A stretch of 64,000 nucleotides of DNA from Vulcanimicrobiota bacterium (GCA_027306785.1 DAHUZB010000024.1:62001-126000), one strand, 5' to 3'; shown: positions 10,321 to 54,332, counted from the first letter of the stretch. Numbers and translations are program-made. The notes: generated from the sequence alone by a model not told the origin.

Positions 10321-12094
10321 TTCCCCGTTCGAGCACGTAGCGCCGATGGTACTCGAACCGTGACGAGCCATCGTCTACGTACGAATCGATCGCATTCAAA
10401 AAGCGCCCGATGACCGTCCACGCCAGCGGCTCTCCGATGAGCGCGACTCCTCCGCGGGTACTGCGTTGAAGGTCGTTCATCGCCGATTGGGCATCCGGCG
10501 AACGTGTGAGCGTGGGAATCCAGACAATGCCGATTTCGTCTTCTCGAAGATTTGCGTTACGGAGAAGTTCGACCGCGGAGGTCAAGGTCGTGCTAAGGAC
10601 GGCGTGAACATGTGTGGCACCCGAGAATGTGATCGGAGGAGAACTGCTCGTCGGCGGTATGCGATCGGCAAACGCATCGAACACCTCAATAATTTCGCGC
10701 GGGACGTCATGCTTGCAATCAAGTCGACCGTCGGAGTAACGAGCTATCGGCGTGCTTTCGTCCATCCATCGACGTGTCGCAAGGACGATGGCCTGAACGT
10801 TTTCGGGTGGCATAGCGAGCGTGCGGCCCCAAGGAACCGGATTTTCTACGCTTACGCCGAGCCGAAGGAGGTCGCCGAACTTCGCACAGATTTCTCCCAG
10901 CATATCGAGCCCGTCCTCGATCCCACCCGCTACGACGATCCGAACAGAAGCTTGTTCTCCGAATAGCCGGTTGGGAACCGGCTTTCCACTAAACACGTCT
11001 ATAAGCCACGGAATCAGCGCTTCAATACCATTTCTCCGTGACGCGGTCGTTTTCGCCACCTCGCCGAGGCGCTCGCGCAAACCTTGATCTTGAGCGAGGT
11101 AGAAGAGCGCTTCCTCAAAGCTCGTCGGCGGAACGAAATTCGTCCATTCAAGAAAGGCGTAGTCGAGGATATGGAAGCCGTACAGGCCGCGGCTGACGTT
11201 CGGGGTGCTCGGGTGCGAACTCGCGCAGGTTACGATCACGGGCTTTCCGGCCATCGCCGCCTCCAAAATCGTGGTGGCCTCCCCCGCGTAGATGTCGCAC
11301 GCGTGATAAAGGTCCGCTAGATCGTATCGCGATCCGAGGAAGAGCGTATTCGGGTGGCTCTTGGAGCGAGTTTCACTTGCCAGGGTACCGTCTCCGACGA
11401 CCACGAGGCGAATTCGGCGGTCGACTCGGCGTGATGCCGTGTCCGCCGCGAAGGAAAGCGGAGGGATAGCGGGCGCTTTATCGATATCAAGGCGACCGAC
11501 CGTTAACAGCATCAGTTCGTCCGGTTGTATGCCGAGTTCCGCGCGCACGGCAGCCGGACTGCGCTGAGGCAATGACGTTCGCTCATCAATCGGGAATGCC
11601 GAGTAGCGAACGGAACGCCAATCAAAGCCGAATGCGCTTGCATGAACCCGCGCCGTGTCGAAAGAGTAGGCGATGACCCGACCTTCATGTGCCGCCTTTT
11701 GAAGCGCCGCCTGATTCTCTCGCGTGTGCGGTACGAAATATGTATCGGAAAGAATCGGAACGAAAACCGGATATTTTTCGCCGAGGGCCGCATTGGCCAT
11801 CATAAACGGAAATTTCGCCGTCGCAAAGACGGCGTCGATCGAGTGCGTTTCTACGGCGCGTACGAGCCGTGCGGTGTCCGAGACGAGTTCCTCGTACTGC
11901 AGCGGGGCCACTTGACGGACCGAACCGATCTCGATGTGCGGAATTTCTCTGCCGTCGATTTCAGTCAATAGCGGACTGATCGGCGATGCAACAATGACAT
12001 GGTGACCGAGTGAGAGCAGAGAACGTGCCAGCATTAGCATGAAACGTCCCTGACCATCGACCTTCTCCATCTCCGTGAAGAGGAGAATATTCAT
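10289..12094 (-). CDS. Glycosyltransferase with long C-terminal extension
   Basis: A protein of 601 residues. The first 370 or so look like a GT-B glycosyltransferase: MNILLFTEMEKVDGQGRF at the acceptor-domain start, LLTVGRLDIDKAP at the linker, and a donor-site segment YAGEATTILEAAMAGKPVIV with the E-x7-E pattern. The remaining 230 residues (from about VRIVVAGGIEDG) form a second alpha/beta region that I do not recognise and which usual GT4 enzymes lack. Base composition is lower in GC than the flanking housekeeping genes. Its start overlaps the upstream methyltransferase stop by 4 bases; it is the last gene of the wecE operon. Confidence 0.65.
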   Translation of the reverse strand: MNILLFTEMEKVDGQGRFMLMLARSLLSLGHHVIVASPISPLLTEIDGREIPHIEIGSVRQVAPLQYEELVSDTARLVRAVETHSIDAVFATAKFPFMMANAALGEKYPVFVPILSDTYFVPHTRENQAALQKAAHEGRVIAYSFDTARVHASAFGFDWRSVRYSAFPIDERTSLPQRSPAAVRAELGIQPDELMLLTVGRLDIDKAPAIPPLSFAADTASRRVDRRIRLVVVGDGTLASETRSKSHPNTLFLGSRYDLADLYHACDIYAGEATTILEAAMAGKPVIVTCASSHPSTPNVSRGLYGFHILDYAFLEWTNFVPPTSFEEALFYLAQDQGLRERLGEVAKTTASRRNGIEALIPWLIDVFSGKPVPNRLFGEQASVRIVVAGGIEDGLDMLGEICAKFGDLLRLGVSVENPVPWGRTLAMPPENVQAIVLATRRWMDESTPIARYSDGRLDCKHDVPREIIEVFDAFADRIPPTSSSPPITFSGATHVHAVLSTTLTSAVELLRNANLREDEIGIVWIPTLTRSPDAQSAMNDLQRSTRGGVALIGEPLAWTVIGRFLNAIDSYVDDGSSRFEYHRRYVLERGIIPFEPPKSS

Positions 12095-12714
12095 GGTGCT
12101 ACCGGAGCATTGGAACAGACGACGGTGAATTCATACAGTCCATAATCAGCGAGCATCGCGATCCATCGTCCGAATCGTTTGCGGCAGTAACGTGTGATGA
12201 GCTCCGGATCCGCATAATACAGCGTCGATTTCATGCGGTCGGGGTCCGAAAACTTGGTCAGCATATTGAACGAGATACTGCGGCTCGCCAGCCGCATGAG
12301 TTCATCCAGAGTCTTGATTGCATAGCGTTCCCAAGCGTCGGTTTCCGTATCCAACTTGACATTGAAAATTCCGCTTGCGACAACGATGTCAAATCGATCA
12401 AGATCAGCCCTTTTTGAAGTGAATATCGCCTCGGGGTGCAGGGACCGGGCCGTTTCAATCATTGCTTCGGATATGTCGTACCCGACGTAGGTGGCCCGGG
12501 GATTCCATTCGAGAAGGAATTCGTAAAAGGCACCGTAACCGCACCCGTAGTCGAGGACGCTGGGCGAGCCGGATCGGGGAATAGCGCGCGAAAGGGCGCC
12601 AAACCGAGTGATCTGTGATTCCTCGGAGTTCCAGTCTACTCCGCGAGGCGAAGCGCCGAACTGCGCCAGGGCTCGATCGTAGTATTCCGCGACGCGTGCC
12701 TCAAGATCGCTCAT
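12091..12714 (-). CDS. Class I SAM-dependent methyltransferase
   Basis: A protein of 207 residues with the Rossmann-fold methyltransferase motif I VLDYGCGYGAF near residue 53, an acidic residue after strand 2 (YVGYDISEAMIETAR), and a motif IV-like FDIVVASGIFNV. It is probably cytosolic. Position between a WbqC-family gene and a glycosyltransferase, with start/stop overlaps on both sides, points to methylation of a sugar or a nucleotide-sugar intermediate. The acceptor cannot be told from sequence. GC content is lower than in the rest of the window, as for its neighbours. Confidence 0.75.
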   Translation of the reverse strand: MSDLEARVAEYYDRALAQFGASPRGVDWNSEESQITRFGALSRAIPRSGSPSVLDYGCGYGAFYEFLLEWNPRATYVGYDISEAMIETARSLHPEAIFTSKRADLDRFDIVVASGIFNVKLDTETDAWERYAIKTLDELMRLASRSISFNMLTKFSDPDRMKSTLYYADPELITRYCRKRFGRWIAMLADYGLYEFTVVCSNAPVAP

Positions 12715-13433
12715 TACGTCTCGATCGCCGGAACGGAGTGCAGATAATTTCGCGCTTCCGGTCCAAGGTGAAGGATCATATCGAGTATTGAAACTCCGTG
12801 TGAGAACGGCGGGTGCAACTGTTCGTATTCACGGTAGCCCTCATAGCTTTTAAATGACACGCTGATGCCCCGGCATTCGAAGCTCTCGGTGTCGAGGTAG
12901 GCTTTTGCCGCGGGGCCGGAAAGATACTCGGTTGCGCCACGGCTCACGCAAATCTCAACGAGTCTGAGATTCCGATCCGGCGGCGTCTCAAAGTTATCCG
13001 AACGTATGATCGGCGTTGAAATTCCCAGGAGCTCACAGAGGCCGCGTATTAGCAATTCGTTTACTCTCGTGAGCAATACTTCGCCGGCTACAAGCTGATA
13101 GAGCTCCTCTATTCTCGGAAAATATTGCTTGAAATGCGGTGCTTTCCCGTATGAGTGTCGTATGGCGGAAAGGTGTCTGTCGTGCCAGCAGGGGTCTGCA
13201 ATGGCCGTCTCATTAATGAGTTGCTCGTACTTGCCTTTTGCATCAATCGGGATTGTGAGCCAAAGAGCTCCGTTCGCGGATTTTATGATATTCCGGTTTC
13301 GCCAGTCGCGGCGTGTGTATTGAACGTCTTCAAGTAAGACGAATTCATCGCAGAGGGAGATGAAGTCGAAATAACCCTTCCATGGGATGTAGTTCGATTG
13401 AATTATCCCGAGGCGCTTGCGGGGGGGAGTCAT
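12714..13433 (-). CDS. WbqC family protein
   Basis: A protein of 239 residues. RLGIIQSNYIPWKGYFDFI at the N-terminus, FVLLEDVQYTRRDWRNRN and the later YLSGPAAKAYLD match the WbqC-like family closely. Members are common in O-antigen and other polysaccharide clusters; their biochemical role is not firmly established, and an aminotransferase- or acyltransferase-associated role in sugar modification has been suggested. The gene shares single bases with the genes on both sides. A run of seven C residues lies within codons 3-5, so a one-base slip would shift the frame almost from the start. Confidence 0.85.
   Translation of the reverse strand: MTPPRKRLGIIQSNYIPWKGYFDFISLCDEFVLLEDVQYTRRDWRNRNIIKSANGALWLTIPIDAKGKYEQLINETAIADPCWHDRHLSAIRHSYGKAPHFKQYFPRIEELYQLVAGEVLLTRVNELLIRGLCELLGISTPIIRSDNFETPPDRNLRLVEICVSRGATEYLSGPAAKAYLDTESFECRGISVSFKSYEGYREYEQLHPPFSHGVSILDMILHLGPEARNYLHSVPAIET
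13421..13427. repeat. Seven-base G/C homopolymer at the start of the WbqC gene
   Basis: Seven consecutive G on the plus strand (C on the coding strand), within the third to fifth codons of the WbqC-family gene. Mononucleotide tracts of this kind can slip during replication and switch glycan genes on and off. Two 8-base tracts occur in the neighbouring aminotransferase gene. The frame is intact in this sequence. Confidence 0.6.
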
Positions 13434-14095
13434 CAGAAATTGCGCAGTTGGCTGCTCGAGCGATCTTGCGAGAAAGTCTCGCTTCCCTTGTAAACGGAGC
13501 CATCCGGAGCGTCATGAAGAATTAGCGCTCCCGCCCCGATGACGCAATCCCCGCCGATCGATATTCCATCCCTAAGCGTCGCGTTAACGCCCAGAAAGGA
13601 ATTGTCTCCGATATGGCAGCTACCCGATATTACGGCGTGGCTTGCAATAAAGACATTGTTACCGATCGTGGAGTGATGGCCGATGTGGTTTCCGCTCCAG
13701 AGGACGCAGTTGTCTCCTATCGTGACGAACGGCTGAATGACGTTATTTTCGAAAATGAAGCAAGCCTGGCCGATCGTCTGGCTATTCCATCTCTGAACGG
13801 ACGAGTGCACGTATGATGGAAGGGTATACCCGAGATCGCGAAGACGTTCGACGGTCTTCCGCCGATTGGCATTCAATTTGCTGAAGCCTATGGCGCAGAA
13901 TACGCTGATATCCGCCGGCCGAAACTCCTTGGACAGGGCAAGCGTGTCGATTACCGGGATCCCGAGTAGAGATGTCGCCTCGTTAAAGCCCTCGTCGACA
14001 CAAAACGCTTCGATTGTGTAATCGGCATCCTCTTGGAGATAGACGGAGGCCACTTGCGCGAAAGCGCCCGTACCGAAAATGACTGCTCGTCTCAT
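13433..14095 (-). CDS. NeuD/PglD-like sugar N- or O-acetyltransferase
   Basis: A protein of 220 residues in two parts. The N-terminal part (1-80) is a small Rossmann-like domain (RRAVIFGTGAFAQVA). The C-terminal part is a left-handed beta-helix of hexapeptide repeats, for example QPFVTIGDNCVLW and SHAVISGSCHIGDNSF, with a His-rich turn GNHIGHHSTIGNN that resembles the catalytic His of PglD. Such enzymes use acetyl-CoA to acetylate UDP- or dTDP-amino sugars. The upstream gene encodes the WecE aminotransferase, so acetylation of its dTDP-4-amino-4,6-dideoxyhexose product is a reasonable prediction. The start overlaps the wecE stop by 4 bases. Confidence 0.8.
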   Translation of the reverse strand: MRRAVIFGTGAFAQVASVYLQEDADYTIEAFCVDEGFNEATSLLGIPVIDTLALSKEFRPADISVFCAIGFSKLNANRRKTVERLRDLGYTLPSYVHSSVQRWNSQTIGQACFIFENNVIQPFVTIGDNCVLWSGNHIGHHSTIGNNVFIASHAVISGSCHIGDNSFLGVNATLRDGISIGGDCVIGAGALILHDAPDGSVYKGSETFSQDRSSSQLRNF

Positions 14096-15279
14096 GCGGA
14101 AACCTCAAACGACGTGATGACATCGGTGACGTAGTTTTGCTGCTCGGCGGTCATTGACGTGAAGAACGGTAGACGGACGAGTCTATCGCTAATCCGTTCC
14201 GTAACGGGGCATTGGGCGGGGGGGGCTCCGAGGCGACGGGCCATTTCGGATTGATGCAGCGGAACGTAGTGAAAAGCAGTGTTGATGGAGCGCTCACGTA
14301 GGTATGCCATAAAGCGCTGTCGTTCGGTCAGGGATGGAAGGACGAGATAGAACATATGATACGACTGGGTCGCGTACGAGGGTATATGAGGCATTTGAAC
14401 GCCTTGAAGTCGGGCCCATTGAGCTAAGCGCTCAGAATACCTCTCCCAGAGAGCGGCTCGACGCCCTTGTATATGCTCCTTAGCTTCGAGTTGTCCGAGA
14501 AGATAGGCCGCCGGCAACTCGGCCGGAAGATAGCTCGAGCCCTTTCCTACCCATGAATATTTGTCGATTTGGCCGCGATAGAATCGGCTGCGATTCGTGC
14601 CCTTTTCCCGTACGATTTCAGCGGTCTCTATCAGCGAGGCGTCGTTTAGGACGAGAGCCCCCCCCTCCCCGCAAGTAAAATTTTTCGTTTCATGAAAACT
14701 TTGAGCCGCAATGGTTCCGATGCTGCCGAGCGGGCGCCCTTTGTAGAGCCCGAAGAGCCCGTGTGCGTTGTCTTCCAGCAGATGGATGCCGTGCCGGTGC
14801 GCGATTTCCGAGATCACATCCATATCGCAGGCGACACCCGCGTAGTGGACCACGACAATCGCCTTCGTTCGCTTCGTGATTGCCGCTTCGATCAAGCGCT
14901 CGTCGATATTCATGGTATCCGGGCGTATGTCTACGAATACCGGTTTCGCGCCTTGCAGAACAAACGCGTTTGCCGTCGATACGAACGTGAAAGAGGGCAT
15001 GATGACTTCGTCGCCGGCCCCGATATCGAGGATGAGCGGCATCATTTCGAGCGCATGCGTGCAGTTTGTCGTTAGCAGGACCTTGTTGACTCCCAACGCG
15101 CCCTCGAGCAGCGCCTGGCAAGCCTTCGTGTACGGGCCGTCGCCGGACAGGTGGGACCCGTCCAAGACCGCGTTCACGTACTCGCGCTCGGTGCCCACGC
15201 ACGTCGCGAGATTGAAGGGTACGCGTGGGGAGATGCCGTTGCCCATGTGCTCCACAAAGAATTCGGATAGTCGTTGCAT
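14092..15279 (-). CDS. wecE: dTDP-4-amino-4,6-dideoxygalactose transaminase
   Basis: A protein of 395 residues that resembles WecE (RffA) along its whole length: GDEVIMPSFTFVSTANAFVL, VDIRPDTMNIDERLIEAAIT, VVHYAGVACDMD and the PLP-lysine segment SFHETKNFTCGEGGA. The enzyme transfers an amino group from glutamate to C4 of dTDP-4-keto-6-deoxyglucose, giving dTDP-Fuc4N. The keto sugar would come from RfbA and RfbB, encoded 3-5 kb away. It is the first gene of a five-gene overlapping leftward operon. Two 8-base G/C tracts lie inside the coding sequence. The family is firm; the exact stereochemistry of the product is inferred from similarity. Confidence 0.88.
   Translation of the reverse strand: MQRLSEFFVEHMGNGISPRVPFNLATCVGTEREYVNAVLDGSHLSGDGPYTKACQALLEGALGVNKVLLTTNCTHALEMMPLILDIGAGDEVIMPSFTFVSTANAFVLQGAKPVFVDIRPDTMNIDERLIEAAITKRTKAIVVVHYAGVACDMDVISEIAHRHGIHLLEDNAHGLFGLYKGRPLGSIGTIAAQSFHETKNFTCGEGGALVLNDASLIETAEIVREKGTNRSRFYRGQIDKYSWVGKGSSYLPAELPAAYLLGQLEAKEHIQGRRAALWERYSERLAQWARLQGVQMPHIPSYATQSYHMFYLVLPSLTERQRFMAYLRERSINTAFHYVPLHQSEMARRLGAPPAQCPVTERISDRLVRLPFFTSMTAEQQNYVTDVITSFEVSA
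14218..14225. repeat. Eight-base G/C homopolymer inside wecE
   Basis: Eight consecutive G on the plus strand, which read as C on the coding strand in the RLGAPPAQCP region near the C-terminus of WecE. A possible slippage site; the frame is intact here. Confidence 0.55.
14658..14665. repeat. Second eight-base G/C homopolymer inside wecE
   Basis: Eight consecutive C on the plus strand (G on the coding strand), in the CGEGGALVL region just after the PLP-lysine of WecE, followed after one base by four more C. A possible slippage site; a one-base change would truncate the enzyme in its middle. Confidence 0.55.
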
Positions 15280-15334
15280 TTAGGTTATCGGTTTTCGAGG
15301 AAATGCCCCTTAGAGGTTCAAAAAACGTTATCGC

Positions 15335-16231
15335 GTGCGTTGGAAGAAATTTGGCCGCGTCTTCACTCCGTCCGGCGAGCAGCCGTGGATGCGTACTCAC
15401 GCTGCGCTGCCCTGGGCGGTTCCCGGCTCTACCGGCGGATTTCGCGTCTTCCTCGCGGGGCGCGACGAATTCGGCCGCTCGAATATCGGGACGATCGATC
15501 TTGACGACGGGATGCGGTATGTACCCGGATCCGAGCGGTGCGTTCTCGAACCCGGTGCTCTGGGCGCCTTCGATGATTGCGGAGTGATGAATGCGTGTCT
15601 GGTCGGTGAAGAGGGGGCACGCCGGCTTTACTATGTCGGCATGACGACCGGTTGCACGGTACCATTTCGCTCCTTCACGGGGCTGGCCGTAGAGCAGGGT
15701 GACGCTTCGTTTCTCCGGTTTTCTCGCTCCCCGATCCTGGAGCGGGATCCCGTCGATCCGTTTTTGACTGCGGCAAGTTTCGTTTTGCGAATCGATGAGC
15801 GCTGGATGATGTGGTATACGTCGGGAGTGCGTTGGACGGTCGAAAACGGTGCGCCGAAGCATTATTATCACATCAAATATGCGCATTCCGTCGACGGCAT
15901 CCATTGGCAGCGCGATGGGCTCGTCTGCATCGACTTTCGACCCGGCGAATATGCAATTGCGCGACCGTTCGTCTCCTATGATGGAACCCGGTTTAAAATG
16001 TGGTACTCCTTTCGGGGAGAGCGTTACCGAATCGGCTACGCAGAATCAGCTGATGGCCTGACGTGGGAACGGATGGACGAGCGAGCGGGCATTGAACCGA
16101 GTCCGGAGGGATGGGACTCCGAGATGATCTGCTATGCGAGTATTTTCGAAAGCGCGGGCGAGCAGTACATGCTGTACAATGGAAACGGATATGGGCGGAC
16201 CGGCTTCGGGATTGCGGTCCGTATCGATTAA
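15335..16231 (+). CDS. Beta-propeller glycosidase-like protein
   Basis: A protein of 298 residues starting at a GTG. Repeated blade-like patterns occur: RRLYYVGMTTG, RWMMWYTSGVRW, IKYAHSVDGIHWQRDG, FKMWYSFRGERYRIGYAESADGLTWER. This YAxSxDGxxW periodicity is typical of five-bladed propellers of glycoside hydrolase families 43, 32, 68 or 130. No signal peptide is visible, so it may be cytosolic. It is the only plus-strand gene in the low-GC glycan block, divergent from wecE (55-base gap) and convergent with the FkbM gene (4-base overlap). It may trim or remodel a glycan or act as a sugar phosphorylase; the catalytic residues were not assigned. Confidence 0.55.
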   Translation: MRWKKFGRVFTPSGEQPWMRTHAALPWAVPGSTGGFRVFLAGRDEFGRSNIGTIDLDDGMRYVPGSERCVLEPGALGAFDDCGVMNACLVGEEGARRLYYVGMTTGCTVPFRSFTGLAVEQGDASFLRFSRSPILERDPVDPFLTAASFVLRIDERWMMWYTSGVRWTVENGAPKHYYHIKYAHSVDGIHWQRDGLVCIDFRPGEYAIARPFVSYDGTRFKMWYSFRGERYRIGYAESADGLTWERMDERAGIEPSPEGWDSEMICYASIFESAGEQYMLYNGNGYGRTGFGIAVRID

Positions 16232-16920
16232 GCGCGAAGGTAGAGCGATTCGCCCCAAGCCGGGAACGTTCGGTCCCCCTCGTAAAGTTCGTGATTTATG
16301 CGCTCGATACACCGAAAGCCGCGACTTGCCAGAACTGAGTCGATTTCGTCTTCGAGGGCACAGCCTTCATACATTTCGATGATGTTCGTTTCGACCAGGA
16401 TAGCATCGAATTGATGTAGCGCCTGCTCTGCGCCGCGGAGCGCCTGCCGCTCGGCTCCCTGAATGTCGATGTTGAGAAAATTGCATCCGTCGAGCCGCCC
16501 GCCGAGCAACAGCGTATCGAGCATCATCCCGGGTGCCACGATTGATCGCTTCGTCTTCAGCGTCGGGACGATTTCACCTAATCGCTTGAGCTGCAATAGC
16601 GAAGATGACTCATCATTGCCGCTCCTGCTCTCGTTGAGGAAAAGAGTGACCGGCATGTCGGCATCGGTGATTGCCGCATGGATGACGTCTACGCCGGCGT
16701 TTTGCCCGTAGGTCGCTCGTAATGATTCGCAGTGCGCCGGATTCGCCTCGATAAGAACGATCTGACTGAGCGATCGTTCGAGGTAGAGCGGGCATTCCTG
16801 TCCGAGGTGAGCGCCGACATGAACCACGCCGCGCAATTCGATCCTACTTGCCAGGACATCAAGGAAAAACCGGGTTGTTGCTTCATGGTCGTCCGGTAAA
16901 ACTTGAACTCTCGGCTGCAT
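16228..16920 (-). CDS. FkbM family methyltransferase
   Basis: A protein of 230 residues with the FkbM signature: GVVHVGAHLGQECPLYLE at motif I, VLIEANPAHCESLR after it, and the later NFLNIDIQGAERQALRGAE. FkbM-type enzymes transfer a methyl group from SAM to a hydroxyl, often of a sugar in a polysaccharide or glycolipid. It is the last gene of a leftward chain that runs from rfbB through rfbA, a methyltransferase and a probable oxygenase, and it shares one base with the preceding gene. A glycan target is therefore likely. Confidence 0.82.
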   Translation of the reverse strand: MQPRVQVLPDDHEATTRFFLDVLASRIELRGVVHVGAHLGQECPLYLERSLSQIVLIEANPAHCESLRATYGQNAGVDVIHAAITDADMPVTLFLNESRSGNDESSSLLQLKRLGEIVPTLKTKRSIVAPGMMLDTLLLGGRLDGCNFLNIDIQGAERQALRGAEQALHQFDAILVETNIIEMYEGCALEDEIDSVLASRGFRCIERINHELYEGDRTFPAWGESLYLRA

Positions 16921-17681
16921 CAGGTTCCGACCTGCTTCGGTTTTGCATCCGGGTTCATGTTGTAATCGGATTCGAGGACGAGCGGGAGAATCATGAGGCG
17001 ACCATTGTCCAGATTCCAGTCGAGTTGCATGTCCGGATCGATCGGGGCGACACCGTGTCTGACCGCCGGCGTCAAGACGAACAAGTCGCCGATATCGCTG
17101 TATTCATCGAGGTGGAGTGCAGGGGAGTTCTCTCGCTCGCGCATGTAGAGGCCACCCGCGTTGAAATGCACCCCGGGCGTCGATGCTTGCACAATCGTTT
17201 GAATGAGGGCGAAATCGCTGTGAGGATCGATGTGCTCTTTCAAATATCCGCCGCCGCGAGGGTAATGCTGACTGACGACGCGGGAAATTCGCCCCGATGA
17301 GGGGAGCGCTTCGTAGTCGGCGTCTTGGTCGACACCGCGAAGGCGATTTTTGATGCGTAAAATATCGCGAAACGGCTCGCAAGCGCCCCCGTTAGAATTA
17401 AAAGGATGGAAATAAAAGCCGTGCATACGGGCTCGTACCCAAGAGCCTTCATATTCATCATTGATACGGTGATAATCAGGGACACCGTCGGTACAAGGAT
17501 GCCAGGACGGACGTTCTCTCTCCGATATTTCGATCAAACGTTCGCGAAATGCCAGTATTAAATCACGCGGGTAAAAGTTTTTGACGATGTAGACATTGTT
17601 GTCGGCGATCGACTTCATGAACGCATCCTGATTTCCGTTCACGAAATCGAGAAAATCGGGTCGTTCGACGATGTGAATCAT
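16920..17681 (-). CDS. Probable 2-oxoglutarate/Fe(II)-dependent oxygenase-like protein
   Basis: A protein of 253 residues without a signal peptide. A cupin-like metal site can be drawn as H-x-D in YLKEHIDPHSDFAL (about residues 146-159) with a distal His in LTPAVRHGVAP (about 205-215) and an Arg or Lys further on, which is the arrangement of double-stranded beta-helix dioxygenases. The N-terminal helix NNVYIVKNFYP is also common in phytanoyl-CoA dioxygenase-like proteins. The substrate may be a sugar of the glycan made by this cluster. Overall similarity is not strong enough to name a family. Confidence 0.45.
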   Translation of the reverse strand: MIHIVERPDFLDFVNGNQDAFMKSIADNNVYIVKNFYPRDLILAFRERLIEISERERPSWHPCTDGVPDYHRINDEYEGSWVRARMHGFYFHPFNSNGGACEPFRDILRIKNRLRGVDQDADYEALPSSGRISRVVSQHYPRGGGYLKEHIDPHSDFALIQTIVQASTPGVHFNAGGLYMRERENSPALHLDEYSDIGDLFVLTPAVRHGVAPIDPDMQLDWNLDNGRLMILPLVLESDYNMNPDAKPKQVGT

Positions 17682-18565
17682 CCGGACTGCGTCTCCGCGC
17701 GATCGTAAAATGATGTGCCTCCCCTTACGCCGAGAGTGCCTATTCTAATTGCGTACTGATGTTTGTAGGCCGAGGCTACGTCATCATAGAGCACCGGGAG
17801 CTTGGCTCGAAGGCCGTAATCGTTGCGAACGTTGTGGAGCTGATGCGCGAGGGCCATCGGCTCAATGCGCAATCGGTAGATTGGCCAATCAAACGCCGTG
17901 TCGGACTCGTCCTGAAAGATCATCCAAGGTTGTTCGTTGGGAAATTCCAGCCAATGGGATACGACGGGCGCGTAGGGCAAGGCGTCATCGGTATCGCTGC
18001 GTTGCAGGATGACCGCGTAGCCGTTCGGTTTTGCCGGATTGTCGCCCCACGCTTCGACTTCGATGACGTGGGTCCCGGGAAAGAGTGTCGCCAGACCCAT
18101 CGGGGTGAAGCGCCAGAAATCCCGATAGCGCGGTTCAAAATGCACGATTTGTGAGAATGGTGCGGCGACGTAAATATAGCCGCCCGGCTTGGTGATCCGG
18201 AGCATTTCTCGTGCCGCGCCCCACGGATCGGGCAGGTGCTCGAGCATTGCCGTGGACACGAGCCAGTCGTAGCGCGCATCCGGAATCATGTTCATGTCGT
18301 TAACGCTGCCGCGGTACGTTGCCGCGGTGGGGCAATCGGGCGTCTCAAGCGTGTGGTATTCGGCGGCGCCGAACATGGCTATTTGCGCGAACTCTTCACT
18401 TAGCGTTCCGCCGCCGATATTCAGCATGGCGCCCGAGACACGTGGACCGAGTATTTCTTGGTAATAGGCATTATTGATCGCGTCGCTTACGATCTGTTGC
18501 TTTCCGGCGCGTGTTACGCGAAGTTTGGTAAGCGCTCTGCGCACTCCGAATGGTGGTAGTAGCAA
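17678..18565 (-). CDS. Class I SAM-dependent methyltransferase, glycan cluster
   Basis: A protein of about 295 residues. The nucleotide-binding strand reads AMLNIGGGTLSEEF, a variant of motif I, followed by YDWLVSTAMLEHLPDPWGAAREML and ITKPGGYIYVAAPF, which are typical of Methyltransf_11 proteins. The open frame extends into rfbA; I take the TTG at 18565, three bases after the rfbA stop, as the start (a GTG 21 bases downstream is the alternative). The stop overlaps the oxygenase-like gene. Target unknown, but probably a sugar or a precursor in the same pathway. Confidence 0.7.
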   Translation of the reverse strand: MLLPPFGVRRALTKLRVTRAGKQQIVSDAINNAYYQEILGPRVSGAMLNIGGGTLSEEFAQIAMFGAAEYHTLETPDCPTAATYRGSVNDMNMIPDARYDWLVSTAMLEHLPDPWGAAREMLRITKPGGYIYVAAPFSQIVHFEPRYRDFWRFTPMGLATLFPGTHVIEVEAWGDNPAKPNGYAVILQRSDTDDALPYAPVVSHWLEFPNEQPWMIFQDESDTAFDWPIYRLRIEPMALAHQLHNVRNDYGLRAKLPVLYDDVASAYKHQYAIRIGTLGVRGGTSFYDRAETQSG

Positions 18566-18567
18566 GG

Positions 18568-19290
18568 TTAGACGCCTCGTTGCCGCGCGACGAGTTGCGC
18601 GGCGCGATAGAGCGATTCGAATTGTCCCGCGTCGGTCCACCAGCCGTCGAGGATATCGTAATAGAGGTCGCCTTCTTTGATATAGGCGTTATTGACGTCG
18701 GTGATTTCGAGCTCGCCGCGCGCCGAGGGCTTGAGGTTGCGGCAGAAATCGAAGACGCGGCGGTCGTACATGTAGATGCCCGTCACCGCGTAGTTGCTCT
18801 TGGGCTGCGCGGGCTTCTCTTCGATGCGGACGATGCGTTCGCCGTCGAGCTCCGGGCAGCCGAAACGCTCGGGATCCTCGACCTCTTTGAGCAGAATGCG
18901 CGCGCCCGAATCCTGCTCCTCGAATTTGCGCACGTAGGGCGAGATATCGTCCTGAATAATGTTGTCGCCCAGGATCACCGCGATGCGCGAGCCTTCGGCG
19001 AAATGTTCGCACAGCTTGAGCGCGTCGGCGATTCCGCCTTCGCCTTCTTGATAGGTGTAATAGATGTCTTTGAGCCCGAAATCGCGACCGTTGCCCAAGA
19101 GGCGCAGAAAGTCGCCCGCGGAGTTGCCGCCGGTGACGATCATGATGTCTTTGATCCCCGCGCGCACGAGCGTCTCGATCGGGTAGTAGATCATCGGCTT
19201 GTCGTAGATGGGCAGCAGGTGCTTGTTCGTCACCTTGGTCAGCGGCCGCAGCCGCGATCCGAGTCCACCCGCGAGAATAACGCCTTTCAT
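18568..19290 (-). CDS. rfbA: Glucose-1-phosphate thymidylyltransferase
   Basis: A protein of 240 residues with the signature motif GVILAGGLGSRLRPLTKVTN at the N-terminus, YQEGEGGIADAL in the middle and the sugar-binding WWTDAGQFESL near the end. It joins dTTP and glucose 1-phosphate to dTDP-glucose in the cytosol. The short form (about 240 residues; enterobacterial RmlA has about 290) is common in Gram-positive, archaeal and deep-branching bacteria. It lies 13 bases after rfbB. No rfbC or rfbD is in the window, so the pathway may branch to the 4-amino sugar through WecE and not to rhamnose. Confidence 0.9.
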   Translation of the reverse strand: MKGVILAGGLGSRLRPLTKVTNKHLLPIYDKPMIYYPIETLVRAGIKDIMIVTGGNSAGDFLRLLGNGRDFGLKDIYYTYQEGEGGIADALKLCEHFAEGSRIAVILGDNIIQDDISPYVRKFEEQDSGARILLKEVEDPERFGCPELDGERIVRIEEKPAQPKSNYAVTGIYMYDRRVFDFCRNLKPSARGELEITDVNNAYIKEGDLYYDILDGWWTDAGQFESLYRAAQLVARQRGV

Positions 19291-19303
19291 ATGCCCCTTC
19301 GCC

Positions 19304-20308
19304 TTAGCGGTGCGCGTACTGCCGTTTGTAATAGTCCAGGAATTCGCCGGACTTCAGCGGTCTCCACCACGCTTCGTTCGCGCGGTACCAGGCGATCGTC
19401 TCGCGTAGGCCCGTCGCGAACTCCACGCGCGGCACCCAACCGATGGCGCGCGCTTTCGCGGTATCGATCGCGTAGCGGCGATCGTGCCCGGCGCGGTCGG
19501 CGACGTGGCGTACATGCGTGTCGAACGAGCGTCCGCAATCTTCGAGCAGCAGCCGCGTGATCTCGATATTCGTGCGCGGATTGCCGCCGCCGATGTTGTA
19601 GATCTCGCCGAGCTCGCCGTGCTCGAGCACGTGCATGATACCGCGCGCATGGTCCTCGACGTGCATCCAATCGCGAATTTGCAGGCCGTCGCCGTAGACC
19701 GGCACGCTCTGGTCGTCGAGCAGATTGGTGACGAAGAGCGGAATCAGCTTCTCCGGGTATTGGTACGGCCCGTAGGTGTTGCTCCCGCGCGTCACGAGCA
19801 CCGGCGTGCCGTAGGTGGTGCGGTAGGCGAGCACCTGGAGGTCGCCGCCGGCCTTACTCGCCGAGTAGGGGCTACGCGGGCGTAGCGGGTCGCTCTCGAC
19901 CGACTCGCCCTCGCTCACGTCGCCGTAGACCTCGTCGGTCGAGACCTGAAGGTATCGCGCGATGCCCCGTTCGCGAACCGCTTCCAGCAGCACGTGGGTG
20001 CCCAGGATGTCGGTCCGCAGAAATTGCTCGGGATCGAGGATCGAGCGGTCCACGTGCGTCTCGGCGGCAAAATTGACGATCGCATCCACCCCGTCGCCGA
20101 TCGCGGCGGCCACGGCGTCGGGGTCGCAGATGTCGCCGTGCACGAAGCGGTAGCGCGGATCAGCTTCGACGTCGCGCAGGTTCGCGGGGTTCCCCGCAGA
20201 GGTCATCGCATCCAGGTTCACAACCCGGAGATCCGGGCGTTCGCGCAACGCCAGGCGTACGAAGTTCGAGCCGATGAAACCGAGCCCGCCGGTGACTAAC
20301 CAACGCAT
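19304..20308 (-). CDS. rfbB: dTDP-glucose 4,6-dehydratase
   Basis: A protein of 334 residues of the extended short-chain dehydrogenase family. The NAD-binding motif is VTGGLGFIGSNFV near residue 5, the catalytic segment is STDEVYG near 125, and the YSASKAGGD motif near 152 supplies Tyr and Lys. The enzyme turns dTDP-glucose into dTDP-4-keto-6-deoxyglucose, the substrate expected for WecE. It is the first gene of the leftward chain that continues with rfbA. The 86 bases upstream, shared with the divergent coiled-coil gene, hold no promoter that I could assign with confidence. Confidence 0.92.
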   Translation of the reverse strand: MRWLVTGGLGFIGSNFVRLALRERPDLRVVNLDAMTSAGNPANLRDVEADPRYRFVHGDICDPDAVAAAIGDGVDAIVNFAAETHVDRSILDPEQFLRTDILGTHVLLEAVRERGIARYLQVSTDEVYGDVSEGESVESDPLRPRSPYSASKAGGDLQVLAYRTTYGTPVLVTRGSNTYGPYQYPEKLIPLFVTNLLDDQSVPVYGDGLQIRDWMHVEDHARGIMHVLEHGELGEIYNIGGGNPRTNIEITRLLLEDCGRSFDTHVRHVADRAGHDRRYAIDTAKARAIGWVPRVEFATGLRETIAWYRANEAWWRPLKSGEFLDYYKRQYAHR

Positions 20309-49267: not shown

Positions 49268-50302
49268 TTAGCTTGCGGTCGTGAAGCCGAGGGCGGCGAG
49301 GACGCGTTGCGTTTCGAGCGCTTCGGCGAAGGTCGGCAGCGCGCTCGTTCCGGTCTCGATCTGCGCGATCCAGGCGTCGTAGAGCTCCATCAGCAGCGGC
49401 ACGTTGCCGTTGATGCTTGCGAACTTGGCGTACGGTGAGGGCGCGCATTGCAGTTCGTTCGTCTCCTCGTCGTCGACGGAGAAGAGCGTCATCTCGTCGA
49501 TCGAACGACCGCTCGCGACCGCGGTGCGATTCTCCGCGTGCACGGCGATCGTGAACGACTCCACCGCGGTCGTCGCATCGACCGTAAGACGCGCGATCAG
49601 TCCGTCGCCGTAGTCGAGCAGCGCGAAGCACCCGTCGTCCACGGTGCTCGTAAAGGCCCCCTGCGCGTCGTCGCGCTGCGGGTTCGCGGTGCGCAGGAAG
49701 CCCTGCACGCGTTTCGGGCTGCGGCCGAGCGTCCAGTTGGCGCTGTCGATCACGTGCGACATCAGCGCGCCCGCGATCCCGCCGCCGCGTTCGCGTTCGA
49801 ACCACCAGCCGCGCGGGCGCGTGCCCTCGCGTCGCAGCCACGTGCCGAGCTGCGTGATCTCGAGTTCGCGCAGTGGTGCGAGGTGACCGTTCGCGACCAG
49901 CTCGCGGATCGCCGCGCGTTGCGGCACGAAGCGGAACTCGTGCGCGATGCCGCACGCGGTTTCGGCCGTGCGCGCGGCCGCGACGAGCTCTTCGGCCTCC
50001 TCGATGTTGAGCGTGAAGGGTTTTTCGCAGATGACGTGCTTGCCCGCATCGAGCGCCGCGAGCACGTCGTCGCGATGCGCGAAGGGCGGCGACGCGACGA
50101 TCACGCCGTCGAGTTCGCAGCCCGCGATCATCTCGCGGGCGGAGGCGAAGGCGTGCGGAATCGAGCGCTCCTTCGCGATCGCCGCGGCGCGCGACGGCGA
50201 CGCCAGCGCGACGACCTCGAAGCGCGGGTGTGCAAGAAGCGCCGGAAGGTGCGCGTTGACGCCGAAGCCGGCGCCGCTGATGCCGATGCGATACGTGTTC
50301 AT
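49268..50302 (-). CDS. Gfo/Idh/MocA family oxidoreductase
   Basis: A protein of 344 residues. The NAD(P)-binding start is RIGISGAGFGVNAHLPAL, and the EKP motif (HVICEKPFTLNIEEAEEL) is at residues 93-95, where Lys takes part in catalysis. Members oxidise or reduce sugars, inositols or other alcohols. It is the last gene of a five-gene operon with LuxE- and LuxC-like proteins and an aminotransferase; its ATG overlaps the aminotransferase stop by 4 bases. Its substrate may be a sugar or an imine/aldehyde made by that pathway; this is inference. Confidence 0.85.
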   Translation of the reverse strand: MNTYRIGISGAGFGVNAHLPALLAHPRFEVVALASPSRAAAIAKERSIPHAFASAREMIAGCELDGVIVASPPFAHRDDVLAALDAGKHVICEKPFTLNIEEAEELVAAARTAETACGIAHEFRFVPQRAAIRELVANGHLAPLRELEITQLGTWLRREGTRPRGWWFERERGGGIAGALMSHVIDSANWTLGRSPKRVQGFLRTANPQRDDAQGAFTSTVDDGCFALLDYGDGLIARLTVDATTAVESFTIAVHAENRTAVASGRSIDEMTLFSVDDEETNELQCAPSPYAKFASINGNVPLLMELYDAWIAQIETGTSALPTFAEALETQRVLAALGFTTAS

Positions 50303-51603
50303 GATTCCTTCGCTGCGATGGAGACGGCGCGTTCGAGCAGATCGATCGCGCGGGAGAGTTGCGCTTGGGTGATGACGAGCGGCGGCGTGATCGAGAGCAC
50401 ATCGCCCGCCGGGCCCGCCTGGAGCATGACGAGGCCTTCGGCGAGCGCGCGTTTGACGATGCGGTCGGCGAAGCGCGCGTCGCGCACTTGTACGCCCCAC
50501 ATCAAGCCGCGCCCGCGTACGTCGAGCACGCCGTCGTGTGCGCGCAGCGTCTGCAGGCGCGCGCCGAGTGTTTCTCCGAGCGTGCGGGCGCGCTCGGGCA
50601 GCGCGTTGCGCTCGAGTTCGTCGATGGTCGCGAGCGCGGCGGCGCACCCCATCGGGTTGCCGAGATAGGTCGAGGTGTGCAGCGCCTCGCCCGCGGAGAC
50701 GGGCCAAGCATCCATGATCTCGGGACGCGCGACCGCCGCGCTGATCGGAAAGCCGGAACCCATCGCCTTACCGATGCAGATGATGTCGGGCACCACTTCT
50801 TCGTGCTGCGCCGCGAACCACGAGCCGGTGCGTCCGAAGCCGGTGTAGATCTCATCGAAGATCAGCACGATCCCGCGCTCGTTGCACAGCTCGCGTAGCC
50901 CGCGCAGGTAGCCGGGAGGGGGAACGATGCAGCCGCCGCGGCCTTGGATCGGTTCGATGATGAGCGCCGCGAGATCGTCGCGAGCGCCGATGCGGTCGCG
51001 CGCGCTTGCGAGCGCAGCTTCGGCCGTGTCGCGGCCGTCCATGGGATAGTCGAGCAGCGTCGTCACGTCGGGAACGAGCGCGGCGAACGGCTCGCGAAAC
51101 TTCGGAATGCCCGAGACCGCGAGCGCACCGAGCGAGAGGCCGTGATAGGCGCCGTGATACGCGACGAAACGATGTTTGCCGGTCGCGAGCATCGCGGTTT
51201 TGAGGGCGGCTTCGACCGCCTCCGAGCCCGCGGTCGCGAGAAACGTTTTGCTCAATCCCGCGGGCAGCACGTGCGTGAGCCGCTCGAGGAGGCGCGTGCG
51301 CACCTCGGTCGGGTGCACGTCGCCCATGCCGTGCATCATGCGTGTCGCCTGATCGTGCACCGCCGCCACCACGTAGGCGTTGGCGTGTCCGACGTTCGCG
51401 ACGCCGAAGGCGGAGGTGAGATCCAGGTAGCGATTGCCGTCGACGTCGCTCACCGTGGCGCCGCTCGCCGATTCCCAAAAGACCGGGAATTCGTCGCTGA
51501 GATAGGTCACGTTGCGCGATTCGTACAGCCGCAGGACCGCGGCGAGTTCCGCCGTGTGCGGGCCGGGCACCGCGCCGTGCAGCGCTTCGAACTCGTCGCT
51601 CAT
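50299..51603 (-). CDS. Class III PLP-dependent aminotransferase
   Basis: A protein of 434 residues. LDLTSAFGVANVGHAN, then FLATAGSEAVEAALKTAM, the IEPIQGRGG motif, LIFDEIYTGFGRTG (Asp250) and the PLP-lysine in IICIGKAMGSGFPISA (Lys279) are all typical of class III (omega) aminotransferases. These often use a terminal aldehyde or ketone as amino acceptor. The LuxC-like reductase just upstream would produce an aldehyde, which makes an aldehyde-to-amine step plausible. The ATG overlaps the reductase stop by 4 bases. Confidence 0.88.
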   Translation of the reverse strand: MSDEFEALHGAVPGPHTAELAAVLRLYESRNVTYLSDEFPVFWESASGATVSDVDGNRYLDLTSAFGVANVGHANAYVVAAVHDQATRMMHGMGDVHPTEVRTRLLERLTHVLPAGLSKTFLATAGSEAVEAALKTAMLATGKHRFVAYHGAYHGLSLGALAVSGIPKFREPFAALVPDVTTLLDYPMDGRDTAEAALASARDRIGARDDLAALIIEPIQGRGGCIVPPPGYLRGLRELCNERGIVLIFDEIYTGFGRTGSWFAAQHEEVVPDIICIGKAMGSGFPISAAVARPEIMDAWPVSAGEALHTSTYLGNPMGCAAALATIDELERNALPERARTLGETLGARLQTLRAHDGVLDVRGRGLMWGVQVRDARFADRIVKRALAEGLVMLQAGPAGDVLSITPPLVITQAQLSRAIDLLERAVSIAAKES

Positions 51604-52823
51604 CGATCGCGTGTGATCCAACGAACGAACTCGGCGACGCGCGGGCGCCCGCCGTGCGCGTTCGCGAGCGGCGGACGCTGCAAGCGCCCCAAGGTGGTAA
51701 AGCGGTGGACTCCCATGCGCAGCCCCATATTCACGATCTCGTCGCGCGATCCGGCAATCGCCATCGCTTCGACCGGCAGCGCGTGGCGTTCCAGGTAGGC
51801 GGCGGCCTCGTCGGGTCCGGCGATGGTGCGGATCGCGAGGGCGCGCGGCAGAAAGGCGGGCGGCTCGCTCGCGGGCGGATCGAGCACGGCGAGATACGAG
51901 GCGCGTTCGTCGGAGAAAACGCCGCCGCTGCCCGTCGCGGCGCGAAACGCGGCCAGGTTGCGCGCGCTCGCCAGCCGCGCGTTCGCGCGCGCATCGCGCT
52001 CGCCGGGCGGAAATTCGACCGCCGCGCGCTCGATTGCCGTGGCGAAGAGTTCGGCAAAGCGCGTCGGGGCGACCGCGCCGCCGCGTTCGACGAAGAGCGC
52101 GTGCAGCGAGAGGCACCCTTCGGTTTCGTAGAGCACCAGGTCGCGCGCCGCGTCCGCCGCGAGCAGGCGGGCCTGCGTCTCATCGTCGAGCGCCTCGCGC
52201 CCGATGTAGCCCACGCTCGCCTTCGAGCCGAAGGCGATGAACGGCGCGTGCGCCGCGGTGCGTTCGCGCACGCGCGCGAGCCCCGCATCGCTGCCGAATC
52301 CCACCACCGCATCGAAGTCGCGCAGATCGACCGCGTCGCTCTCGCCGACCCACGTCTCGGCGCGTGCGGCGGTAGCCATCGGTTCGAGCTCTTCGGCGAG
52401 CGCGGAGAAGAAGGCGCGAACCAAGCCGTCTTCGCGATCTTTCACGAGGACGTCGCATTTCGCGCAGAGCGCGAAGATCGCGGGCACGATCGCGACGCCG
52501 ATCGTCGTGCGGCTGGAGATCACGGCCACGCGTCCGATCGGGCGCGCATGGCCTTGCGTCGTCTCGGTGCGATCCACGAATCGATCCAGCGCCGCGAGCG
52601 AGCCGAGCTCGGCGGCGATCGTCTCTTCGAGTGCGCTCGCGGTGATCGAGAAGAAGAGCTGGTCGAGCGCGTACTCGACGACGGGCAGCGTGTAGCCGGT
52701 GCGCTCGACGATGCGATCGAGCAGGCGAACCCGCGGCGGAAAGTCCGCGTCGGCGAAGCGTTCGGCGGCGTCGGCGATCGCGCGCACGATGCGCGCCGCG
52801 GGAACGGCCGAGAGCGCCGTCAT
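51600..52823 (-). CDS. LuxC-like acyl-CoA/acyl-enzyme reductase
   Basis: A protein of 407 residues. The segment LVLYETEGCLSLHALFVERGG places the probable acyl-accepting Cys at residue 237, in the position of the catalytic Cys of LuxC, and the earlier ISSRTTIGVAIVPAIFALC and DAVVGFGSDAG belong to the same aldehyde-dehydrogenase-like fold. LuxC reduces an activated acyl group with NADPH to an aldehyde. No luciferase genes are near, so light production is not implied. The ATG at 52823 overlaps the stop of the LuxE-like gene by 4 bases. Confidence 0.82.
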   Translation of the reverse strand: MTALSAVPAARIVRAIADAAERFADADFPPRVRLLDRIVERTGYTLPVVEYALDQLFFSITASALEETIAAELGSLAALDRFVDRTETTQGHARPIGRVAVISSRTTIGVAIVPAIFALCAKCDVLVKDREDGLVRAFFSALAEELEPMATAARAETWVGESDAVDLRDFDAVVGFGSDAGLARVRERTAAHAPFIAFGSKASVGYIGREALDDETQARLLAADAARDLVLYETEGCLSLHALFVERGGAVAPTRFAELFATAIERAAVEFPPGERDARANARLASARNLAAFRAATGSGGVFSDERASYLAVLDPPASEPPAFLPRALAIRTIAGPDEAAAYLERHALPVEAMAIAGSRDEIVNMGLRMGVHRFTTLGRLQRPPLANAHGGRPRVAEFVRWITRDR

Positions 52824-53929
52824 CGGCGGATCAGATCCTCGGCATCGAGCGAACAGCCGCGCAGCTCGGCGCCCGCCTCGCGCCCGATCAGCACCAGGCC
52901 GCGATCGAATTGCACGCCGAGATCCTCGGTTTGGATCGCGAGGCACGACGAGCGATTGGCGAGATCGACGTGCACGAGCGCGCCGACCGTACCGTTCGGC
53001 AGCGTCCGGCCGTCGGGACCGACGACCCGGGCGCGCAGCCACGGCGGCGCGACTTTGTAGCGTACGCCGTGCCCCGGTTCGCGCGCGATGCGCACGTCGT
53101 CGTAGTACTGCGAGGTGAGCTCGGTCATGCCGTACTCGGCGACGATCGCATCGTGCGTCATCCCGAAACGTTCGCACAGTTCGTCGTAGAGGTCGTCGCG
53201 CTCGACCACGCGCGAACGGCCTTTGAATCCGCCGGTCTCCATGATCCGCGATCCCGACGGCAACGCGACGAAGAGATCGCGCTCGCGTAGCGCGTCGAGC
53301 AGATGTACGAGTGCAAATGCGGTCGCCGCGATGCAGATCGGTGCGCCGCGTTCGATCTCGACGGAGAGATCGGCGAGGAAGGGTTCGATCAGTAACTCGT
53401 CTCCGCGCAGATACCAGCCCGCGGCACGCGCGCGCGCCGCGCAGACCTGCGCCATCATGTAGCCGAGCGAGGACTGCTTGCGCTCGGTGGGGTTCGGTAC
53501 GAGATTGAAATAGCGCAGATGCGGATGATCGGGCAGCATGAAGCGATCGAAGCCCGCGAGCAGCGCCGCATCGTAGAGCGCGGCGCGCTCCATGTAGTGA
53601 CGCCCGCCCACGCCCTGCGTCGTACCGCTCGTTTCGAAGGCGAGCTCCGCGTGCGCGGGATCGAACGTGGCGATCGCGGCTTCCTTGAACGCGCCGTTCG
53701 GCAGCGGCGGAATCGCGTGCCACGAACCCGGCAGGCGATCGGGGGTGATGCCCAGACTCGCGCAGTAGCGTGCGTAGGGCGCGTTGTAGCGCAGCTGATA
53801 GGTGAAGATGCGCAGCGCGAGCGACTCGAACTCGGCGTCATCCATCGGTTCGCCGCTGCGGTGCCAGCGCTCGACGATCGCGAAGAGCGACTCGTCGAGG
53901 CGCGCGGATTCCTCACGATAGGAGCGCAC
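52820..53929 (-). CDS. LuxE-like acyl-protein synthetase
   Basis: A protein of 369 residues of the LuxE/ANL type. The adenylation loop FETSGTTQG is at residues 98-106, EYGMTEL at 265-271 serves as the core motif, and the conserved C-terminal RGCSLDAEDLI places Cys359 at the site that accepts the acyl group in LuxE (Cys364 in Vibrio harveyi). It should activate a carboxylic acid with ATP and pass it to the partner reductase encoded just downstream. Substrate chain length is unknown. Its start overlaps the CoA-binding gene by 17 bases. Confidence 0.82.
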   Translation of the reverse strand: MRSYREESARLDESLFAIVERWHRSGEPMDDAEFESLALRIFTYQLRYNAPYARYCASLGITPDRLPGSWHAIPPLPNGAFKEAAIATFDPAHAELAFETSGTTQGVGGRHYMERAALYDAALLAGFDRFMLPDHPHLRYFNLVPNPTERKQSSLGYMMAQVCAARARAAGWYLRGDELLIEPFLADLSVEIERGAPICIAATAFALVHLLDALRERDLFVALPSGSRIMETGGFKGRSRVVERDDLYDELCERFGMTHDAIVAEYGMTELTSQYYDDVRIAREPGHGVRYKVAPPWLRARVVGPDGRTLPNGTVGALVHVDLANRSSCLAIQTEDLGVQFDRGLVLIGREAGAELRGCSLDAEDLIRR

Positions 53930-54332
53930 GATGCTCCGTCTTCATGCAGAGATCGACGACCACGTCGAGCCCGGCCGCATCGGCCTTGGCGATCGCCTCG
54001 GGGTTGACGACGCCGAGTTGGAACCAGATCGCGCGGGCTCCCGCCGCGATCGCGTCGTCGACGACCGGCAGCAGATCCTCCGGTTTGCGAAAGACGTCGA
54101 CGATGTCGGGCGCACCGTGCGCGGCGGCGTAGGCGGCGATCGTCGGATAGGCGGCGACGTGCTCCACCTCCGCCACCGCGGGATTGATCGGCACGGCGTC
54201 GTAGCCGCGGGCACGCAGGTAGGTGAAGACGTCGTAGCTCGGTCGCTCCGCTTTGGGCGAGGCGCCGACGACGGCGATGCTCCTGCTGCGTTCCAAGAGC
54301 GCCTTGCGCTCGTCCGGTGTCGTCAAGATCAT
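53913..54332 (-). CDS. CoA-binding domain protein (YccU type)
   Basis: A protein of 139 residues with a Rossmann-like CoA-binding domain. SIAVVGASPKAERPSYDVFTYLRARGYDAVPINP near residue 17, the VDVFRKPED motif and IWFQLGVVNPEA are typical of the YccU group. It lacks the ligase domains of succinyl-CoA synthetase-like enzymes. It is the first gene of the LuxE-LuxC-aminotransferase operon and could deliver or sense CoA. The ATG at 54332 is 41 bases from the divergent leuC start. Members are common and not specific to any pathway. Confidence 0.8.
   Translation of the reverse strand: MILTTPDERKALLERSRSIAVVGASPKAERPSYDVFTYLRARGYDAVPINPAVAEVEHVAAYPTIAAYAAAHGAPDIVDVFRKPEDLLPVVDDAIAAGARAIWFQLGVVNPEAIAKADAAGLDVVVDLCMKTEHRALLS

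What the first reader, a model, noticed from the sequence alone, without database searches (positions are those of the whole stretch)
49268..54332. LuxE-LuxC-aminotransferase-oxidoreductase operon without luciferase
Five leftward genes overlap one another at every junction (17, 4, 4 and 4 bases): CoA-binding protein, LuxE-like acyl-protein synthetase, LuxC-like reductase, class III aminotransferase, Gfo/Idh oxidoreductase. Both acyl-carrying cysteines are kept (Cys359 of the LuxE-like, Cys237 of the LuxC-like protein), as are the PLP lysine (Lys279) and the EKP motif of the oxidoreductase. The simplest reading is a carboxylic acid activated and reduced to an aldehyde, then transaminated to a primary amine. 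The oxidoreductase may act on a second substrate or the product. I know of no described system with this exact set; this could be a new lipid-amine or amino-sugar pathway.
Basis: partly seen in the sequence, partly recalled or inferred. Interest (0 to 1): 0.78.

Follow-up and report, generated by a model that had tools for sequence, protein, structure and literature searches.

The report
Conserved acid-to-amine enzyme trio
A three-gene set whose enzymes should turn a carboxylic acid into an aldehyde and then into an amine is kept across almost all bacteria of one little-known class and in much of the Myxococcota; no description of it was found, and its substrate is unknown.

Summary
The five overlapping leftward genes are real: CoA_binding_2, LuxE-like, LuxC-like, class III aminotransferase and Gfo/Idh, in a Candidatus Eremiobacterota (Vulcanimicrobiota) genome. 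The five are not one unit. The conserved core is three genes. The same trio in another order, AT3-LuxE-LuxC, occurs in Myxococcota and UBP4. Gfo/Idh is confined to part of the class. The CoA-binding gene travels with a metB-like gene when LuxE moves away. AT3 forms its own subfamily. Every member read has Arg where other class III enzymes have the switch Glu. Ser/Ala/Thr and a few other residues, never Arg, replace the carboxylate-binding Arg, and Leu/Val/Met (Ile in one) replaces the distal-carboxylate Arg/Lys. The best reading is acid + ATP to LuxE thioester, reduction by LuxC to aldehyde, then transamination to a primary amine. This works like TamA/TamH and PigE but is built from LuxE/LuxC. 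The trio's chemistry is inferred, and the substrate is open: a hydrophobic acid fits best, while glutamate and malonate were considered and not supported. 'Lipid amine' and 'amino sugar' remain guesses.

The parts
52820..53929 (-). LuxE-like acyl-protein synthetase (369 aa, GTG start); core gene 1; acyl-carrying Cys359
   Evidence: PF04443; only PDB sequence relative is LuxE of 7XC6; model pLDDT 88, ANL/PaaK adenylating fold; invariant RGCS
51600..52823 (-). LuxC-like acyl-thioester reductase (407 aa); core gene 2; Cys237
   Evidence: PF05893 4.8e-33; aligns with LuxC of 7XC6 at the active Cys
50299..51603 (-). class III aminotransferase AT3 (434 aa); core gene 3; Lys279, Arg222, Ser404, Leu156
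   Evidence: PF00202; own subfamily in tree and residue signature; model pLDDT 91, class III fold
49268..50302 (-). Gfo/Idh/MocA oxidoreductase (344 aa); lineage-specific accessory gene
   Evidence: PF01408; next to AT3 in 29 of 32 Eremiobacteria loci, absent from order f3 and Myxococcota loci
53913..54332 (-). CoA_binding_2 protein (139 aa); probably belongs to a neighbouring met cluster, not to the pathway
   Evidence: PF13380; stays with metB-like gene when LuxE relocates

Best explanation
A three-enzyme module makes a primary amine from a carboxylic acid. LuxE adenylates the acid with ATP and holds it as a thioester on Cys359. LuxC takes the acyl group onto Cys237 and reduces it with NAD(P)H to an aldehyde. 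AT3, a PLP enzyme, converts the aldehyde to a primary amine with an amino-acid donor. Its single Arg222, at the position of the switch Glu, probably binds the donor carboxylate, and Leu156 makes the other substrate pocket neutral or hydrophobic, so the aldehyde probably carries no nearby carboxylate. In the window's lineage Gfo/Idh acts before or after this, and the CoA-binding protein is probably unrelated. Shown by computation: families, catalytic residues, conserved linkage, AT3 signature. Inferred: reaction order, donor, substrate class.
For: Families and catalytic cysteines. LuxE model has an ANL adenylating fold. Linkage LuxE-LuxC-AT3 through the class and AT3-LuxE-LuxC in Myxococcota: 29 of 30 top loci and 8 of 20 lower-scoring ones, with AT3 alone beside LuxE in 4 more, with few shared neighbours. 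AT3 split from PatA/GabT/ArgD/BioA/HemL at 100/99. Arg in place of Glu in 70 of 70, no Arg at the second site, Leu/Val/Met at the distal site. Those positions are Glu243, Arg426 and Lys183 in E. coli YgjG (PMC4244111). Same chemistry proven for TamA/TamH (PMC9594044) and PigE (PMC8341465).
Against: No enzyme of the trio has been assayed. Gemmatimonadota loci have LuxE-LuxC with no AT3 beside them and Sumerlaeota loci have LuxE without a neighbouring LuxC, so LuxE/LuxC can serve other ends. In genus g5 LuxE is separate from the rest. LuxC of the two phyla is only distantly alike. Class III folds also include racemases.
Confidence: 0.62

Rival explanations
1. The acid is a small amino-acid-pathway metabolite, for example glutamate (LuxE-LuxC give glutamate 5-semialdehyde, AT3 gives ornithine) or malonate (giving beta-alanine).
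For: ProA is missing as equivalog from nearly all triad-bearing Eremiobacteria but present in 19 genomes of triad-lacking classes. PanD is absent from V. alpinus and the window genome. Amino-acid genes (leuCD, metB-like) lie next door.
Against: The carboxylate-binding Arg180/Arg413 of OAT are replaced by Leu and Ser. PanD is missing from the whole phylum, also without the triad. Ornithine cyclodeaminase is present in many triad genomes including V. alpinus. A Myxococcota genome has triad, ProA and PanD. ProA loss is one class-level event.
Confidence: 0.12
2. LuxE-LuxC make an aldehyde (or, after a further step, an alcohol) for another purpose, and AT3 acts on a different substrate in the same wider pathway.
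For: LuxE-LuxC without AT3 in Gemmatimonadota and some Myxococcota; LuxE relocated in g5.
Against: AT3 and LuxE are neighbours in two phyla and UBP4 in different order, with a shared AT3 subfamily.
Confidence: 0.15
3. AT3 is a racemase or epimerase of the class III fold, not a transaminase.
For: Isoleucine epimerase, caprolactam racemase and Ala/Ser racemase are among the top fold matches.
Against: GABA transaminases match equally well; a racemase would have no clear role beside acid reduction.
Confidence: 0.05
4. Amino-sugar or surface-glycan pathway, with Gfo/Idh acting on a nucleotide sugar.
For: LuxE/LuxC occur in flagellin glycosylation islands of Enterobacteriaceae (PMC4875605); Gfo/Idh relatives act on sugars.
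Against: No sugar gene seen beside the trio in the neighbourhoods listed. Gfo/Idh is not part of the core.
Confidence: 0.06

Closest known systems
TamA/TamH of tambjamine YP1 (Pseudoalteromonas tunicata)
   Same: ATP-dependent acid activation to a thioester, thioester reduction to aldehyde, class III transamination to a primary amine; demonstrated in vitro (PMC9594044).
   Different: Activation on an ACP fused to an adenylation domain; [quoted passage not shown] part of a natural-product cluster.
PigE of prodigiosin biosynthesis
   Same: Thioester reduction plus class III transamination (PMC8341465); AT3 matches the PigE model at 1e-84, far below its equivalog cut-off.
   Different: Single fused protein, AAR-type reductase, no LuxE.
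LuxC-LuxE fatty acid reductase of bacterial luminescence (7XC6)
   Same: Only PDB sequence relatives of both proteins found; catalytic cysteines kept.
   Different: Far below the LuxC/LuxE equivalog cut-offs (22.8 of 750 and 45.7 of 550 bits); LuxC-like shorter; no luciferase subunits or LuxD among the neighbouring genes read; AT3 present instead.
E. coli putrescine aminotransferase YgjG/PatA
   Same: Best PDB sequence match of AT3, class III fold.
   Different: Glu243-Arg426 ion pair replaced by Arg and Ser; about 36% identity.

Membership tests
Luminescence fatty acid reductase (LuxC/LuxE) | LuxE and LuxC domains with acyl-carrying Cys | tested here: met
Luminescence fatty acid reductase (LuxC/LuxE) | NCBIfam equivalog score for LuxC and LuxE | tested here: not met
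   22.8 vs 750 and 45.7 vs 550 bits
Luminescence fatty acid reductase (LuxC/LuxE) | luciferase gene linked to the operon | tested here: not met
   none among the genes read around the operon; the genome's single bacterial-luciferase-family match lies on another contig
Class III aminotransferase (PF00202) | family score and PLP lysine | tested here: met
   Lys conserved in cluster members
Class III aminotransferase (PF00202) | Glu-Arg ion pair for the 2-oxoglutarate carboxylate (typical, not universal, in the class) | tested here: not met
   Arg and Ser/Ala/Thr instead (PMC4244111)
TamH/PigE acid-to-amine systems | reductase fused to transaminase, AAR-type reductase | tested here: not met
   separate genes; reductase is PF05893 LuxC
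TamH/PigE acid-to-amine systems | acid turned into amine | not testable with these tools
   needs enzyme assay

The most novel reading that the evidence does not exclude
Eremiobacteria and most Myxococcota share an undescribed, nearly universal primary-amine metabolite or amine-bearing lipid, made by a LuxE-LuxC-AT3 core pathway with a rearranged aminotransferase active site.
Probability: 0.35. Interest if true: 0.8.

Novelty: new variant of a known kind. Interest (0 to 1): 0.62.

Why it matters
LuxE and LuxC are known mainly from light production, where their aldehyde feeds luciferase. Here relatives of both are held with an unusual aminotransferase as near-universal, single-copy genes in a bacterial class and widely in Myxococcota, which suggests a basic function that has no name. 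One host is cultured, so the product can be sought directly.

Tried and rejected
Sigma-70 promoter and terminator scans and Rfam gave nothing useful. Literature searches for LuxE+LuxC+aminotransferase, LuxE with alkylamine, and Myxococcus acyl-protein synthetase found no description of the trio; the library lacks most subscription papers. The myxobacterial ether-lipid genes elbA-E are not this system (PMC9131029). Beta-alanine supply: PanD absence does not track the trio. Glutamate semialdehyde supply: ProA absence tracks at class level, but ornithine cyclodeaminase offers another route in many genomes. In the AT3 tree two own-genome paralogs (L113, L116) were extracted by me in a wrong frame and their rows are to be ignored.

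Full report
What is there. The window lies in a 3.1-Mb Candidatus Eremiobacterota genome (G000). On the minus strand five genes overlap by 17, 4, 4 and 4 bases: CoA_binding_2 (53913-54332), LuxE-like (52820-53929), LuxC-like (51600-52823), class III aminotransferase AT3 (50299-51603) and Gfo/Idh (49268-50302). LeuC and LeuD are divergent upstream; CinA and a subtilase-like gene read towards the cluster from downstream.

Conservation in the class. A LuxE-like gene is in 111 of 149 genomes of the phylum, confined to the window's class, usually single copy. Of 32 Eremiobacteria loci with enough flank, my script finds LuxC next to LuxE in 28, AT3 in 30, Gfo in 29 and CoA_binding_2 upstream in 27; at least one miss (L034) is a detection artefact, since its LuxC lies 11 bases past LuxE. 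In the order called f3 the set is LuxE-LuxC-AT3 with no CoA_binding_2, metB-like or Gfo gene. In genus g5 LuxE sits beside rpsK-rpsD-rpoA-rplQ, LuxC and AT3 (usually with Gfo) remain together near cinA, and CoA_binding_2 remains with a metB-like gene. So the core is LuxE, LuxC and AT3; CoA_binding_2 most likely belongs with the metB-like gene. G118 is one contig of 3,508,363 bp, the exact length published for Vulcanimicrobium alpinus WC8-2; it carries the whole set (L140). The identity rests on length only.

Conservation outside the phylum. In Myxococcota and Deltaproteobacteria records and in UBP4 the order is AT3-LuxE-LuxC. Of 141 Myxococcota genomes 120 have a LuxE-like gene at E <= 1e-30. 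AT3 and LuxC flank it in 29 of the 30 best loci; among 20 lower-scoring loci 8 have both, 4 have AT3 only, 2 LuxC only and 6 neither. The 20 lower loci were chosen by hand, not at random. In one group the trio lies between folK/cysH and the suf genes; elsewhere few neighbours are shared. Gemmatimonadota loci have LuxE-LuxC without AT3, and Sumerlaeota loci have LuxE without a neighbouring LuxC.

The aminotransferase. A tree of 88 class III proteins separates AT3 of both phyla from E. coli PatA, GabT, ArgD, BioA and HemL and from the window genome's own paralogs (support 100/99; two rows mis-extracted by me are to be ignored, several long branches). In YgjG, Glu243 and Arg426 form the strictly conserved pair thought to handle 2-oxoglutarate, and Lys183 replaces the Arg that binds the substrate carboxylate in OAT, AcOAT and GABA-AT (PMC4244111). 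In AT3 these positions are Arg222, Ser404 and Leu156 (434-aa numbering, one less than printed). All 70 aligned cluster AT3s have Arg at the first; none has Arg at the second; the third is Leu in 67, Val in 2 and Met in 1. The 41 further Myxococcota AT3s agree wherever the motif could be read, with more variety (Val, Gln, Cys, Gly) at the second site and one Ile at the third; one truncated sequence was not readable. I infer that Arg222 takes over donor-carboxylate binding and that the aldehyde has no nearby carboxylate. The genome has separate ArgD-, GabT-, PatA-, BioA- and HemL-like paralogs, so AT3 is not needed for those jobs.

LuxE and LuxC. Their only PDB sequence relatives are LuxE and LuxC of 7XC6. 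The LuxE model (pLDDT 88) has an ANL fold, nearest PaaK with ATP. The C-terminal tail with Cys359 is modelled with low confidence, so its position says nothing.

Mechanism. The most economical reading is acid, acyl-LuxE, acyl-LuxC, aldehyde, amine. TamA/TamH turns C12 acid into C12 amine in vitro (PMC9594044) and PigE reduces a thioester and transaminates the aldehyde (PMC8341465); both use reductases of another family. The substrate is not known.

Tests of substrate ideas. PanD is absent from 148 of 149 genomes of the phylum irrespective of the trio, so it gives no support to a beta-alanine role. ProA is present in 19 genomes outside the class and in two (7-8% contamination) inside it. Ornithine cyclodeaminase-family genes occur in many trio-bearing genomes but not in the window genome. 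This is compatible with a glutamate-semialdehyde role but is one class-level contrast with another available explanation, and it conflicts with the AT3 residues.

Limits. All function is inferred from sequence. Absence from literature means absence from the open-access library searched. MAGs may be incomplete.

Noticed in passing
G091, G092 and classes f6-f16 versus Eremiobacteria: ProA is missing from nearly all Eremiobacteria but present in other classes of the phylum; the window genome also lacks an ornithine cyclodeaminase-family match, leaving its proline route unclear.
   Followed up: partly
whole phylum: PanD is absent from 148 of 149 genomes, so the beta-alanine source of this phylum is unclear.
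   Followed up: no
L141 (G000:C30:74139-75404): The window genome's best match to the metB-like gene that precedes this operon in relatives lies on another contig, at 52% identity, with one in-frame TAA inside the match.
   Followed up: no
L122, L124, L039: In genus g5 the LuxE gene lies at or near the rpsK-rpsD-rpoA-rplQ gene block.
   Followed up: partly
window 10000-18500: A stretch of about 55-56% GC in a 65% GC window, flanked at 18568-20308 by genes that read like rfbA and rfbB and holding a DegT-like reading frame; a glycan cluster by eye, not searched.
   Followed up: no
L131, L132 and Myxococcota loci: Suf iron-sulphur genes lie within a few kilobases of the trio in two distant groups; cysH is nearby in one. 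May be chance.
   Followed up: no
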